DNA of 64,000 bases from Fimbriimonas ginsengisoli Gsoil 348 (GTDB lineage: Bacteria; Armatimonadota; Fimbriimonadia; Fimbriimonadales; Fimbriimonadaceae): positions 2,418,001-2,482,000 of the forward strand of contig NZ_CP007139.1 of assembly GCF_000724625.1 (NCBI RefSeq), given 5' to 3'. The first letter of the stretch is position 1. Every line of letters begins with the position of its first letter. The translations under genes and the position numbers were made by a program. Below the pieces are notes generated by a model. It was given only the letters and a program-made list of their open reading frames with translations, was not told the DNA's origin and ran no database searches. This document shows positions 24,046 through 27,529 of the stretch, piece after piece.

Positions 24046-24110
24046 GGCATTACCCTTTCCCAACGCCAAACGCCAAACGCCAAACGCCAAACGCCAAACG
24101 CCTACCGCCT
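24031..24110. repeat. Heptad tandem repeats, family I copy 3
   Basis: GGCGCGAGGCGTTGAGGC, the core CATTACCCTTTCC, then five AACGCCA heptads. It overlaps the stop codons of both convergent flanking genes. Confidence 0.9.
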
Positions 24111-25169
24111 AAGCCTCCGTACCGTCGCCTCCATCACCGCCGTCGTCTGCGCCGAGACGGTGTAGACGAGCGCCTCGCGATAGACTCTTTGCGCGGGATG
24201 GGACAGCGAGTTGGCGGCGCCGCTCGAAGCGGCGATGGCGGCGTGGGCGCAGCGAACGGCCAACTCGATCGCCCAGGCGCGGACCCTCAACCTCTCGTCC
24301 GTCGTCTCCTCGTCCACGCTTTTCTGAGCCTCGGCCGTGGCCACGTGACAGTCGGCGAGCTCCTGCTCTAGTGCCGCCGCTGCGTCGGTGAGGAATGAGA
24401 TTCCCTTTTTCTCGCCGGCTTGACGGACGATGTCGATGCCGGCCTGCGCGCATCCCAGCGCGAAATGCCCTTGGAGCGCGACGTTGATTTGGTCGTTGTT
24501 CTTGATCCAGTTAGGTGGCCGAATGTAGGCAACCCGCTCTTTCGGCAAGAAGAACCCCGAGAATTCCGCGGACACGGTGTTGGCGCTCTCCATGGCGGCA
24601 AGCCGCATAGGAGGGGAAACTTTGATCTCCCTCTCCCGATCTTCCAGCGGCACAATCCCGAAGACCGACCGGCCGTCGGGAAGGGCCGCTCCGATCATGA
24701 ACTCCGGGAAAAGGCCGCCGCCGGTAATCCACGGCACATGTCCCTCCAGGCGGTAGCCGCCGTCGACCGGCTCTGCCCGCATAATCGGCGGCCCGCCCCG
24801 CCGGAGCTGGCTGAAGCCGATCCCCACCAGCTTCCCGCCGTCTCCCATCTGGGGCAGATACTCGGCGGCGAGATCTTGGTTTTCGCAACTGGAGAGCATG
24901 GCGACCGCGCTTTGATGCTGCGTCGTCAAGAACGCCAGCGCGCCGGAGGTGCGGGCGATCTCCTCCTGGTACTCGCGGAACATCGGCTCCGACATCTCAG
25001 GTCCGCCAAATTTGGCCGGCCGCTTGAGCGCCATCAAGTCTCGTTCGCAAAGACCGCGCATCGCTTCCGCTACCATCGCGGGGTCTTGGTCGATCAGTTG
25101 CGCCTTAGGCGCGACCTCCTCGCGAAAATAACGCTTCGACTCTTCGAGCGCCGCCTCGGCCGATCTCAT
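24102..25169 (-). CDS. Acyl-CoA dehydrogenase family flavoprotein
   Basis: A 355-residue protein with the acyl-CoA dehydrogenase layout: an N-terminal helical domain (LMALKRPAKFGGPEMS), a beta domain (GIGFSQLRRGGPPIMRAEPVDGGYRLEG split by family-typical turns), and a C-terminal helical bundle. The catalytic Glu is not obvious, and the C-terminal part around SSGAANSLSHPAQRVYREA resembles the FAD-contact segment. The usual acyl-CoA-site motifs are weak, so it may be one of the desulfurisation or nitroalkane-type relatives. It is monocistronic and slightly short for the family. Confidence 0.8.
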   Translation of the reverse strand: MRSAEAALEESKRYFREEVAPKAQLIDQDPAMVAEAMRGLCERDLMALKRPAKFGGPEMSEPMFREYQEEIARTSGALAFLTTQHQSAVAMLSSCENQDLAAEYLPQMGDGGKLVGIGFSQLRRGGPPIMRAEPVDGGYRLEGHVPWITGGGLFPEFMIGAALPDGRSVFGIVPLEDREREIKVSPPMRLAAMESANTVSAEFSGFFLPKERVAYIRPPNWIKNNDQINVALQGHFALGCAQAGIDIVRQAGEKKGISFLTDAAAALEQELADCHVATAEAQKSVDEETTDERLRVRAWAIELAVRCAHAAIAASSGAANSLSHPAQRVYREALVYTVSAQTTAVMEATVRRLRR

Positions 25170-25225: not shown

Positions 25226-26653
25226 GTGACTCTCGACGACCTGCTGACCCTCCTTCACGGCTGTCCGCTCGTTGCTTCCGTTCAGGCCAGCGAAGGGTCG
25301 CCGGTGGACGACCCGGAGACCCTGCTGAAGCTCGCCCGCGCCAGCACCTTGGCCGGCGTTCGCCTGCTTCGGCTTCAGGGCGCTCGAAATATCCGCGCTA
25401 TTCGCCGCGGAACCGGTGTGCCGGTGATCGGGCTAATCAAGCGGACCTATCCTGACAGCGACGTGTACATCACCCCCACGATCTGGGAAGTCGACGAAGT
25501 GATCGACGAAGGGGCCGAGGTCGTGGCGCTCGACGCCACCGCTCGCCACCGATCCGGGGACGCGCTTCTGGGCGACCTTATCGCCCATGCCCACAGCCGC
25601 GAAGCGCTCGTTTTGGCCGACATCGACACCGTCGAGAACGCCGTGGCGGCCGTTGCCGCGGGCGCCGACATGGTGAGCACGACCCTGGGCGGCTACACCT
25701 CCGAGCGGGCGGCCACCACGGGCGCGGATCTGGAGTTGCTTAGGCAGACGATCGCCGCCGTGACGGTTCCGGTTTTTGCGGAGGGGCGCTATGCGCACCG
25801 CTGGGAGATCGATGCGGCATTGCGCATCGGTGCGGCAGGCGTGATCGTCGGCGGAGCCCTCAACGATCCCGTGAAGCAGACCCGGGCCCTCATGCCGGTC
25901 CGATTCGAGGGGGACAAGGTTGGCGCGGTCGACATCGGAGGCACCTGGCTCCGCTTCGGAACCTTTACCTCCGACTGGAAGCTTATCGAGGTGGAGAGAA
26001 CTCCTAATCCGCCCAAGCGGGAGGAGCGCCTGCAATGGATCCGCGACCGGATTCAGGCGAGCGGCGTTCATCGGGTTGGGGTTAGCACCGGCGGTATCGT
26101 CGATCCCCGGACCGGGTTGGTTTGGAAGGCCAAGGAATATCTGATGGCAGACCACGTCGGCATCGTCTTTAGCGAGGAGACGTTGGGGATTCCGACGTTC
26201 GCTATCGGCGACGGCCACGCAACTGCGTGGGGTCACGCCAATCTACCGCGCTTCGCCGGGCGGCGAGTGGCAACCCTCGCGATCGGCACCGGGCTCGGCG
26301 CGGGCTTCGTTCAGGAAGGGAAGATTTGGGCTGGCCGGCGTGGCGAATATCCCCGGGTGAACGACTTGCCGGCACCGGGCGGCAAAACGTACGAGGAGTT
26401 GCTCGGCGGTATTCACATCACCAAAGAGCCGACCCAAGAAGCGGAGGCTCGCGCGATCCTCGCGCTCGAATCCGCGTTAAAGGCGGTGAGCGATCTGTAT
26501 TTCCCCGACGACATCGTTATCGCCGGCTCCGTCGGCCTCAGCCCCTGGCTCGCGCCTCATCTACACCGATTGGGCGCGATCCCGTCGCCGTTCGACCACG
26601 ACGCCGGTCTCTACGGCGCCGCCGCGGTTGCCTTGTTCCCACCCCCGCTGTAA
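25226..26653 (+). CDS. Fused N-acetylmannosamine-6-P 2-epimerase (NanE) and ROK kinase
   Basis: A 475-residue two-domain protein. Residues 1-225 are NanE-like: GLIKRTYPDSDVYITPT with Lys72, GADMVSTTLGGYT, and VFAEGRYAH with Glu186. Residues 230-475 are a ROK sugar kinase: AVDIGGTWLRFGTF (phosphate loop, 235-248), VGVSTGGIVDPRTG and IGTGLGAGFV. The zinc-binding Cys motif of many ROK proteins is missing. Together they would phosphorylate N-acetylmannosamine and epimerise it to GlcNAc-6-P. GTG start. Activity on sialic acid-derived sugars is inferred from families, and no sialidase or aldolase is nearby. Confidence 0.88.
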   Translation: MTLDDLLTLLHGCPLVASVQASEGSPVDDPETLLKLARASTLAGVRLLRLQGARNIRAIRRGTGVPVIGLIKRTYPDSDVYITPTIWEVDEVIDEGAEVVALDATARHRSGDALLGDLIAHAHSREALVLADIDTVENAVAAVAAGADMVSTTLGGYTSERAATTGADLELLRQTIAAVTVPVFAEGRYAHRWEIDAALRIGAAGVIVGGALNDPVKQTRALMPVRFEGDKVGAVDIGGTWLRFGTFTSDWKLIEVERTPNPPKREERLQWIRDRIQASGVHRVGVSTGGIVDPRTGLVWKAKEYLMADHVGIVFSEETLGIPTFAIGDGHATAWGHANLPRFAGRRVATLAIGTGLGAGFVQEGKIWAGRRGEYPRVNDLPAPGGKTYEELLGGIHITKEPTQEAEARAILALESALKAVSDLYFPDDIVIAGSVGLSPWLAPHLHRLGAIPSPFDHDAGLYGAAAVALFPPPL

Positions 26654-26662
26654 GGATGTAGG

Positions 26663-27529
26663 ATGCTCGGCTATCACGCAAACATGGCAGTCGCGGTTGC
26701 TCATGCAACTCCGTACCTGGCGGGAGACGATGAGGCATTAAAGGAATTCACCTATGCCGCCGGCCGACTGGGCGTGCGCCAAGAGTTATATACCGTCCTC
26801 TTCAACCGGTCGGGTGTGCTTGCCAAAAATCGGCGGCAATGGTTCCAGTACCTGCGGGATCACGGCGGAAAGCGTGCCTTCTTAGCCGTTTTGCCGAAGC
26901 AAGCGGATTACTGGGAGATCCCCTTCAACCACGCCTTTACCGGAAATCACAATTGGGCGGTTTGCATCGAAACCGAAGATCGACCCAATTATTGGCACCT
27001 TCGCATTAATTCTTCCTATTCGGCCAATCCGTCCGAAGAACAGGTCGAGACCGGTCGGGAAATTCCCAGTCCAAGGCCGGGAGAAGAGAGGATCGAGCTC
27101 CACTGGGGATTGTTCCTCGCGGACCGCGAACACGTCTTTGTGAGGGGGAAGCTTGCCGCTTGCGAGCAGCAATTGAATACGTTGTTGACTGACCTTATTC
27201 TGTTTTGCGCCGAAAACGAATTGGAGGAATGGCGTAGCGTATTCGTTCGGTCATTGTCGATATTGGAATCCAAAATCGACCTCCCCATCATGGAAATGGG
27301 TCGCTACTTTCCATCGCGGGGATACAGCCCTCGCGTACAAAGACTTCTCTATTCGGCATTGGGCGCGGATGTTCTGGGTGGAATGGACTCGTGGAACGAT
27401 CAGTATTTTCAAAACCAGGAGGTTAAGGCACGTTTTGATGCCCTTTCGTCGCGCATCGGGCCGGCCGTCGTGGAAGCCATCGTAGTTGCGTTGGATCAAT
27501 TCGAACCGTCGTCGGGTGTCACTCTCTAA
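26663..27529 (+). CDS. Hypothetical protein
   Basis: A 288-residue soluble protein with no signal peptide or membrane helix. No motif is recognised. It has a conserved-looking middle (WEIPFNHAFTGNHNWAVCIETEDRPNYWHLRINSS) and a helical C-terminal half. The start is nine bases after the NanE-ROK stop, so the two may share an mRNA, though its function need not be related. Codon use is slightly more AT-rich than neighbours. Confidence 0.7.
   Translation: MLGYHANMAVAVAHATPYLAGDDEALKEFTYAAGRLGVRQELYTVLFNRSGVLAKNRRQWFQYLRDHGGKRAFLAVLPKQADYWEIPFNHAFTGNHNWAVCIETEDRPNYWHLRINSSYSANPSEEQVETGREIPSPRPGEERIELHWGLFLADREHVFVRGKLAACEQQLNTLLTDLILFCAENELEEWRSVFVRSLSILESKIDLPIMEMGRYFPSRGYSPRVQRLLYSALGADVLGGMDSWNDQYFQNQEVKARFDALSSRIGPAVVEAIVVALDQFEPSSGVTL

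What the first reader, a model, noticed from the sequence alone, without database searches (positions are those of the whole stretch)
25226..26653. NanE-ROK kinase fusion
Epimerase and kinase of amino-sugar catabolism are joined in one 475-residue chain, with the epimerase first. The ROK part lacks the usual zinc Cys cluster. Channelling of ManNAc-6-P is possible. Nearby genes give no sialate link.
Basis: partly seen in the sequence, partly recalled or inferred. Interest (0 to 1): 0.5.

Follow-up and report, generated by a model that had tools for sequence, protein, structure and literature searches.

The report
Fused ManNAc kinase and epimerase
A soil bacterium and most of its family carry one protein that joins two successive amino-sugar enzymes, a real and long-conserved fusion of an already known kind, and in one related genus both active sites have been lost together although the protein has been kept.

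Summary
25226-26653 (+) is one 475-residue ORF: NanE epimerase (aa 35-216), then a ROK kinase (aa ~230-473) without the zinc Cys cluster. It is no frame artefact: 71 of 85 genomes of its family carry it, 66 of them in one uninterrupted frame. The epimerase lysine and the kinase catalytic aspartate are each kept in 67 of 70 readable genomes; the 3 exceptions are one genus.

The model is confident (pLDDT 94.3); its halves best match NanE (Z 32.5) and ManNAc kinases (human GNE, Z 29.4). Zinc-less NanK is known (PMC5458393, PMC10017367), and same-order fusions lie on rhizobial plasmids. So: a variant of a known kind.

Most likely role: ManNAc + ATP to ManNAc-6-P to GlcNAc-6-P, feeding a conserved NagA. 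No standard sialate lyase was found.

Unexpected: in genus code g31 both active sites are destroyed together, the gene stays open under purifying selection (dN/dS 0.06-0.16), and NagA is missing from its usual place. This ties both halves and NagA to one route and suggests a pseudoenzyme.

The parts
25226..26653 (+). whole fused ORF, 475 aa, GTG start; first possible start after the upstream stop
   Evidence: same fused frame in 71 of 85 family genomes
25328..25873 (+). NanE-type epimerase domain (aa 35-216)
   Evidence: Pfam PF04131 150.5 bits; PRK01130 219.9 bits; model matches C. perfringens NanE 4utw Z 32.5, rmsd 1.3, 210 aligned
25439..25441 (+). K72, aligned with the lysine that reads A in the C. 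perfringens variant chain 4utu; catalytic Lys63/66 of NanE
   Evidence: alignment; role from passages of PMC8482478; K in 67 of 70 family genomes, D in the 3 of g31
25781..25783 (+). E186, counterpart of S. aureus NanE Glu180
   Evidence: 71 of 71 readable; role from passages of PMC8482478
25865..25867 (+). D214 where S. aureus NanE has the sugar-contacting Arg208; departs from the published NanE signature VG(S/G)AxTR
   Evidence: D in 71 of 71; unfused NanE of the phylum have R, A or N there
25886..25915 (+). linker (aa 221-230)
   Evidence: lowest confidence block of the model, mean pLDDT 69 for aa 211-220 and 89 for 221-230
25913..26653 (+). ROK kinase domain (aa ~230-475), median 246 aa in the family, shorter than solved NanK chains of 285-309 residues
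   Evidence: PF00480 51.8 bits over aa 233-373 only; model matches human ManNAc kinase 2yhw Z 29.4, rmsd 2.1, 240 aligned; lengths
25931..25945 (+). DxGGT phosphate/metal motif (aa 236-240)
   Evidence: D236 in 71 of 71; GGT becomes GVH in g31
26210..26212 (+). D329, catalytic base of the kinase
   Evidence: D in 67 of 70, R in the 3 of g31; role from passages of PMC10031466
26342..26365 (+). GEYPRVND (aa 373-380) in place of the ROK sugar motif GExGH; resembles GELHKANE of S. aureus NanK
   Evidence: alignments; R377 61 of 68, N379 65 of 68, E374 43 of 67
26393..26395 (+). E390, in the place of the Glu that closes the zinc motif (GNE E588) and contacts the sugar
   Evidence: E in 68 of 68; role from passages of PMC2742894

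Best explanation
A bifunctional enzyme. The C-terminal ROK half phosphorylates N-acetylmannosamine (or a close N-acetylhexosamine) at C6 with ATP, using D236/T240/T355 for metal and phosphate and D329 as base, without structural zinc. The N-terminal TIM-barrel half then inverts C2 of ManNAc-6-P to give GlcNAc-6-P, using K72 and E186. A conserved separate NagA deacetylates GlcNAc-6-P to GlcN-6-P, which, as canonical NagB is rare in the family, probably goes into UDP-GlcNAc and cell wall rather than being burnt. Shown: both domains, conservation of both catalytic sets, fold, family-wide inheritance, joint loss of both sites in a genus that also lacks NagA. Inferred: substrate, direction, flux. 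Not shown: channelling.
For: Both catalytic sets are kept in 67 of 70 readable genomes, with D132 and E186 in 71 of 71, D236 in 71 of 71 and E390 in 68 of 68. Model pLDDT 94.3, pTM 0.92; NanE half Z 32.5, kinase half best with ManNAc kinases: GNE 29.4, H. influenzae NanK 28.0, then fructokinase 26.2 and S. aureus NanK 26.0 (rows within 1 are tied). The profile of the kinase half ranks GNE and S. aureus NanK first in the PDB. NagA match in 68 of the 71 fusion genomes; the 3 without it are exactly the 3 with both sites dead. NagA lies in a dprA block in 12 of 12 loci read, and in 2 of 2 readable g31 genomes the next gene follows dprA directly.
Against: No substrate evidence from neighbours: the 25 largest neighbour clusters printed hold no recognised amino-sugar gene. 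NanE residue Arg208 is Asp in all fusions; E374 of the sugar motif is not conserved, 43 of 67. The kinase half scores 39.1 bits against the NanK equivalog cut-off of 450. Source of ManNAc unknown: no NanA over its cut-off in 85 genomes. Twelve or so family genomes have NagA but no fusion, so NagA does not depend on it. The g31 link is one evolutionary event; the 1.8e-5 ignores kinship. Only 2 of 85 NagA matches pass the NagA cut-off.
Confidence: 0.7

Rival explanations
1. Bifunctional enzyme, but for another N-acyl-hexosamine (for example GlcNAc first, or a C3/C4-modified or 4-epimeric sugar), the pocket of both halves having shifted.
For: D214 replaces Arg208, which contacts the C3 and C4 hydroxyls in S. 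aureus NanE (passages of PMC8482478), in 71 of 71 fusions; GExGH is replaced by GEYPRxND; E374 varies.
Against: Unfused NanE of the phylum also vary at that place (R, A, N), and the S. aureus R208A enzyme kept 4% activity, so the residue is not decisive. S. aureus NanK, a ManNAc kinase, has a similar GELHKANE motif.
Confidence: 0.22
2. The kinase half is the missing MurNAc 6-kinase of cell-wall recycling.
For: MurQ is strong in 80 of 85 genomes while AnmK is over its cut-off in only 2 of 85.
Against: A BadF-type kinase lies next to murQ in 8 of 12 loci read (Pfam PF01869 in the 2 scanned), which is the usual MurK type (recalled). A NanE partner makes no sense for MurNAc-6-P. g31 keeps MurQ but not the fusion's active sites.
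Confidence: 0.04
3. The fusion serves sialic acid breakdown with an unrecognised lyase.
For: 68 of 85 genomes have a BNR_2 (sialidase-type) match over the cut-off, own genome included (49.8 bits); 13 genomes have one at E below 1e-70. NanA's strict cut-off (382 bits) is passed by only 1 of 14 control genomes, so divergent lyases would be missed, and 84 of 85 genomes have weaker matches of that superfamily.
Against: No lyase, transporter or nan regulator recognised near the gene in the 41 loci. Fusion genomes without any BNR_2 match exist, for example G111, G112, G114.
Confidence: 0.12
4. Frame or assembly artefact joining two genes.
For: In 2 unfused relatives of the phylum the ROK frame follows the NanE stop directly and in the same frame (L020, L026), so such a join is easy.
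Against: 66 separate genomes, as low as about 40% identical to the window in a half, have one open frame through both halves.
Confidence: 0.01

Closest known systems
NanE (ManNAc-6-P 2-epimerase), C. perfringens 4utw, S. aureus 6vva
   Same: TIM barrel, Q20/R49/K72/D132/E186 in the places of Gln11/Arg40/Lys63/Asp124/Glu180; passes NCBIfam PRK01130
   Different: fused to a kinase; D214 for Arg208, N213 for Thr; separate clade in the tree (30 of 30 rows)
Zinc-less NanK of S. aureus (6q26/6q27) and F. nucleatum (5nck)
   Same: ROK fold, DxGGT, catalytic Asp, no Cys cluster; S. aureus GELHKANE resembles GEYPRVND
   Different: about 40 residues shorter; GExGH His replaced by Arg (61 of 68); far below the NanK equivalog cut-off
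Rhizobial NanE-ROK fusions on plasmids (Sinorhizobium B11 LVY75_07120, Microvirga, Rhizobium BG6); the UniProt name 'Bifunctional enzyme NanE/NanK' is recalled
   Same: same order in one chain of 505-555 aa, no Cys zinc motif in 4 of 4 read
   Different: keeps a GH-type sugar motif (AGHFG/AGHVG); lies beside a GntR regulator and sugar ABC transporter genes; whether the two fusions share one origin is undecided (p-AU 0.62)
Human GNE
   Same: epimerase first, ROK ManNAc kinase second in one chain; kinase half is the best structural match
   Different: GNE's epimerase is a UDP-GlcNAc hydrolysing one of another fold and works in sialate synthesis (recalled); GNE has zinc

Membership tests
NanE family | NCBIfam PRK01130 / Pfam PF04131 cut-offs | tested here: met
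   219.9 bits (cut-off 189), 150.5 bits (cut-off 27)
NanE family | catalytic Lys, Glu180, Arg40, Asp124 counterparts | tested here: met
   K72, E186, R49, D132 present
NanE family | signature motif VG(S/G)AxTR (PMC8482478, passages) | tested here: not met
   window reads VGGALND; D214 in 71 of 71. Unfused NanE of the phylum with TA or TN fail it too, so it is a poor test
ROK kinase | Pfam PF00480 cut-off | tested here: met
   51.8 bits (cut-off 22.9), aa 233-373 only
ROK kinase | DxGxT and catalytic Asp | tested here: met
   D236 71 of 71, D329 67 of 70
ROK kinase | ExGH sugar motif | tested here: not met
   EYPR in the window
ROK kinase | zinc motif CxCGxxGCx(E/D) | tested here: not met
   no row of 68 has more than 1 Cys in the region. 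Known NanKs lack it too (PMC5458393, PMC10017367)
NanK equivalog | NCBIfam NF047821 cut-off | tested here: not met
   39.1 bits against 450
NanK equivalog | ManNAc kinase activity | not testable with these tools
   needs an assay
bifunctional NanE-NanK fusion | NanE then ROK in one open frame | tested here: met
sialate (nan) catabolic operon | NanA, transporter or regulator nearby | tested here: not met
   no NanA over the cut-off in 85 genomes; none recognised among printed neighbour clusters of 41 loci

The most novel reading that the evidence does not exclude
In genus g31 (3 genomes) the fused enzyme has been turned as a unit into a pseudoenzyme: both catalytic sites destroyed (K72D and Q20H; GGT to GVH, D329R, GTG to GKS), yet one open frame kept under purifying selection in both halves, after NagA was lost. 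It would then act without catalysis, for instance as a binder or sensor of ManNAc-6-P/GlcNAc-6-P or ATP, or as a partner of another enzyme, and active relatives may have that second function too.
Probability: 0.5. Interest if true: 0.6.

Novelty: new variant of a known kind. Interest (0 to 1): 0.37.

Why it matters
It gives a clade-wide, zinc-free, compact NanE-ROK fusion outside the sialate setting in which the pair is usually studied, and a natural experiment (g31) in which both active sites and the downstream NagA are lost together while the protein persists. The second makes a clear test of whether a bifunctional metabolic enzyme can be retained for a non-catalytic role.

Tried and rejected
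Frame artefact: rejected by 66 uninterrupted relatives. Recent local fusion: rejected, it is family-wide. Fusion proven independent of the rhizobial one: could not be shown; the AU test does not reject one clade (p 0.62), with long-branch warnings, and the NanE tree is an unrooted three-way split. Standalone copies of this kinase half in the family: none strong; the strongest matches are the fusions plus fragments at contig ends (G130, G097), the next is 52.7 bits. Fusions elsewhere: the genome-contig scan kept 80 of 103 relatives, of which the fused ones are Fimbriimonadia-type records (one labelled Methanoregulaceae, one plain 'bacterium' more than once); its patterns are specific to this clade, so other fusions are not excluded. 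L170 (Bacillota) is unfused. Canonical NagB as next step: weak, 14 of 85 at E<=1e-3, none over the cut-off, 3 at E<=1e-35. PF07221 (GlcNAc 2-epimerase/AGE type) as ManNAc source: 25 of 85 only, own genome included, so not a general source. MurNAc kinase reading: see rivals. Papers: searches listed no paper on a NanE-ROK fusion in this phylum; (Fimbriimonas with N-acetylmannosamine) found 0; only an open-licence library was searched. The S. aureus NanK paper is not held; its zinc result is taken from passages of the review PMC10017367.

Rows left out: alignment A1 holds 38 and A2 37 of the 43 fusions then at hand; L030 and L032 are second copies of G131 and G154 and were dropped from the counts; of 71 fusions, 4 are cut by contig ends (G097, G119, G122, G124) and 1 (G086) is split by a frame break; G150 lacks about the last 25 residues of the match. 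G130 has only a kinase fragment at a contig end and is not counted among the 71.

Full report
Observation. The ORF at 25226-26653 (+) is 475 aa with a GTG start. Pfam places NanE at aa 35-216 and ROK at aa 233-373; NCBIfam gives the NanE subfamily above its cut-off and NanK far below its equivalog cut-off. The genome (one contig of 5,231,762 bases) has no other copy of the fusion. Titles of the nearest named relatives are Fimbriimonadaceae/Armatimonadota (lineage); that the strain is Fimbriimonas ginsengisoli Gsoil 348 is a guess from genome size, not shown.

Spread. A NanE search of 291 genomes of the phylum has matches over the cut-off in 129. In the window's family 71 of 85 genomes have one; in the other families the NanE hits lie mostly in open frames of about 230-310 aa. 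I fetched all 71. Of them 66 have one uninterrupted frame through both halves, 4 are cut by contig ends, and 1 has a frame break. The kinase half has no strong free-standing copy in the family. Both halves form single groups in trees (30 of 30 NanE rows and 19 of 19 ROK rows, support 100). So the fusion is old and inherited within this family.

Possible precursor. Of 29 unfused NanE loci read (28 of the phylum and L170, mostly with 1.5 kb flanks), 6 have a ROK frame detected in the stretch. In L020 and L026 it begins right after the NanE stop in the same frame. This is an arrangement from which a fusion is easy; it does not show that the fusion came from those lineages.

Active sites. In the aligned family (duplicates dropped): K72 is K in 67 and D in 3 of 70; D132, E186, D214 and D236 are constant in 71 of 71; R49 in 69 of 69; Q20 is Q in 66 and H in 3 of 69; D329 is D in 67 and R in 3 of 70; E390 in 68 of 68; N379 in 65 of 68; R377 in 61 of 68; E374 in only 43 of 67. 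K72 aligns with the residue that is Ala in the C. perfringens variant chain 4utu, and S. aureus Lys63Ala and Lys63Glu have no detectable activity (passages of PMC8482478). In P. shigelloides NagK, changing the base D105 or the metal-binding D6 lowers activity at least 1000-fold, and T10V and T132V lose activity (passages of PMC10031466); the counterparts here, by motif, are D329, D236, T240 and T355.

Zinc. None of 68 readable fusions has more than one Cys in the region of the zinc site. The His of GExGH is also gone (EYPR). The profile of the kinase half aligns GEYPRxND with GELHKANE of S. aureus NanK, one of two zinc-independent NanKs described (passages of PMC10017367 and PMC5458393). So the missing zinc site is a known variation, not evidence of inactivity.

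Fold. The model of the window protein has mean pLDDT 94.3 and pTM 0.92. Among solved chains the NanE half matches 4utw (Z 32.5, rmsd 1.3, 210 aligned) and the kinase half 2yhw, human GNE ManNAc kinase (Z 29.4, rmsd 2.1, 240 aligned), then H. influenzae NanK (28.0); fructokinase and S. aureus NanK follow at 26. Foldseek gives the same two families.

A point against plain ManNAc specificity. The published NanE signature ends in Thr-Arg; the Arg contacts C3 and C4 hydroxyls and its Ala variant keeps about 4% of kcat. All 71 fusions have Asp there, while unfused NanE of the phylum have R, A or N. A shifted substrate is therefore a serious rival.

Pathway. NagA (TIGR00221) matches in 80 of 85 family genomes at E 1e-37 or better, though only 2 pass the family's own cut-off. 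In 12 of 12 loci read it lies beside a dprA-like and a PQQ-repeat gene (names by my reading of the sequences and by the search). Canonical NagB matches in 14 of 85, none over the cut-off, 3 strongly. MurQ is strong in 80 of 85, AnmK over its cut-off in 2 of 85, and a BadF-type kinase sits by murQ in 8 of 12 loci. So GlcNAc-6-P to GlcN-6-P is a standing route in this family, most simply a cell-wall salvage route (inference). NanA passes its cut-off in 0 of 85, with the caveat that only 1 of 14 controls passes it. Against the 'no sialate' view, 68 of 85 genomes have a sialidase-type BNR_2 match over the cut-off, strong in 13; the family is broad, so this is not proof of sialidase.

Neighbours. 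In 41 loci (40 fetched and the window) the commonest neighbours are a uracil-DNA-glycosylase-like gene (17 of 41), a HIT-like gene (13), and glycyl-tRNA-synthetase-like (11); no amino-sugar gene was recognised among the 25 largest clusters printed (names by my reading).

The g31 genus. G147, G148 and G149 have the full 480-residue protein in one frame, but K72D, Q20H, D329R, GGT to GVH and GTG to GKS; 20 of 55 otherwise near-invariant columns differ in at least one of them. Pfam no longer sees ROK in the one scanned. Yet pairwise dN/dS is 0.056-0.155 in both halves at synonymous distances of 0.56-1.2, and a model built with 26 other relatives in its alignment stays confident (pLDDT 90.9, pTM 0.90; the relatives help impose that fold). 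These 3 are also the only fusion genomes of 71 without a NagA match. In G148 and G149 the permease gene that follows NagA elsewhere follows dprA directly; G147's contig ends too early to tell. They hold other amidohydrolases, keep MurQ, and have about three PF07221 copies each, more than any other family genome. The NanE tree nests them inside the active fusions. The simplest reading: with NagA gone, both activities became useless and decayed, while the protein kept some other use. It is one event in three related genomes, so the formal 1.8e-5 overstates it.

Known and new. Same-order fusions exist on rhizobial plasmids: 8 records (H1-H8, of 405 with any match) have one continuous match over about 68-70% of the query; 4 were read as single frames of 505-555 aa, one of which was scanned and has NanE and ROK. 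Zinc-less NanK and the epimerase-then-kinase order of GNE are known too. What differs is the clade, the shortened kinase with GEYPRxND, the Asp in the epimerase pocket, the lack of a sugar operon, and the g31 state. Verdict: new variant of a known kind, moderate interest, most of it in g31.

Noticed in passing
G147, G148, G149 (L077:786-2228, L070:5625-7067, L078:5532-6974): Fused protein with both active sites destroyed but under purifying selection; NagA missing at its dprA site in the two readable genomes.
   Followed up: yes
G147, G148, G149: About three PF07221 (AGE-type) copies per genome, more than in any other genome of the family.
   Followed up: no
family genomes, e.g. L225:6056-7192, L227:6274-7143: BadF/BcrA-type kinase beside murQ in 8 of 12 loci, with AnmK nearly absent: probably the MurNAc kinase of this family.
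   Followed up: partly
L214, L215, L216, L217 (rhizobial plasmids): NanE-ROK fusions annotated only as epimerase (L214) or not annotated in the table held; none has the zinc Cys motif.
   Followed up: partly
L060, L061 (734 codons), L086 (711), L077-family frames of 609-645 codons in L053, L071, L102, L044: Open frame runs far upstream of the fusion; Pfam finds no extra domain in L053 or L060, so probably only a long open frame.
   Followed up: partly
window 26663-27529 (+): 288-aa protein starting 10 bases after the fusion, no Pfam or NCBIfam match.
   Followed up: no
window 24102-25169 (-): Short (355 aa) acyl-CoA-dehydrogenase-like protein, divergent from the fusion; similar genes lie within about 5.5 kb in 14 other loci, at changing places.
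   Followed up: no
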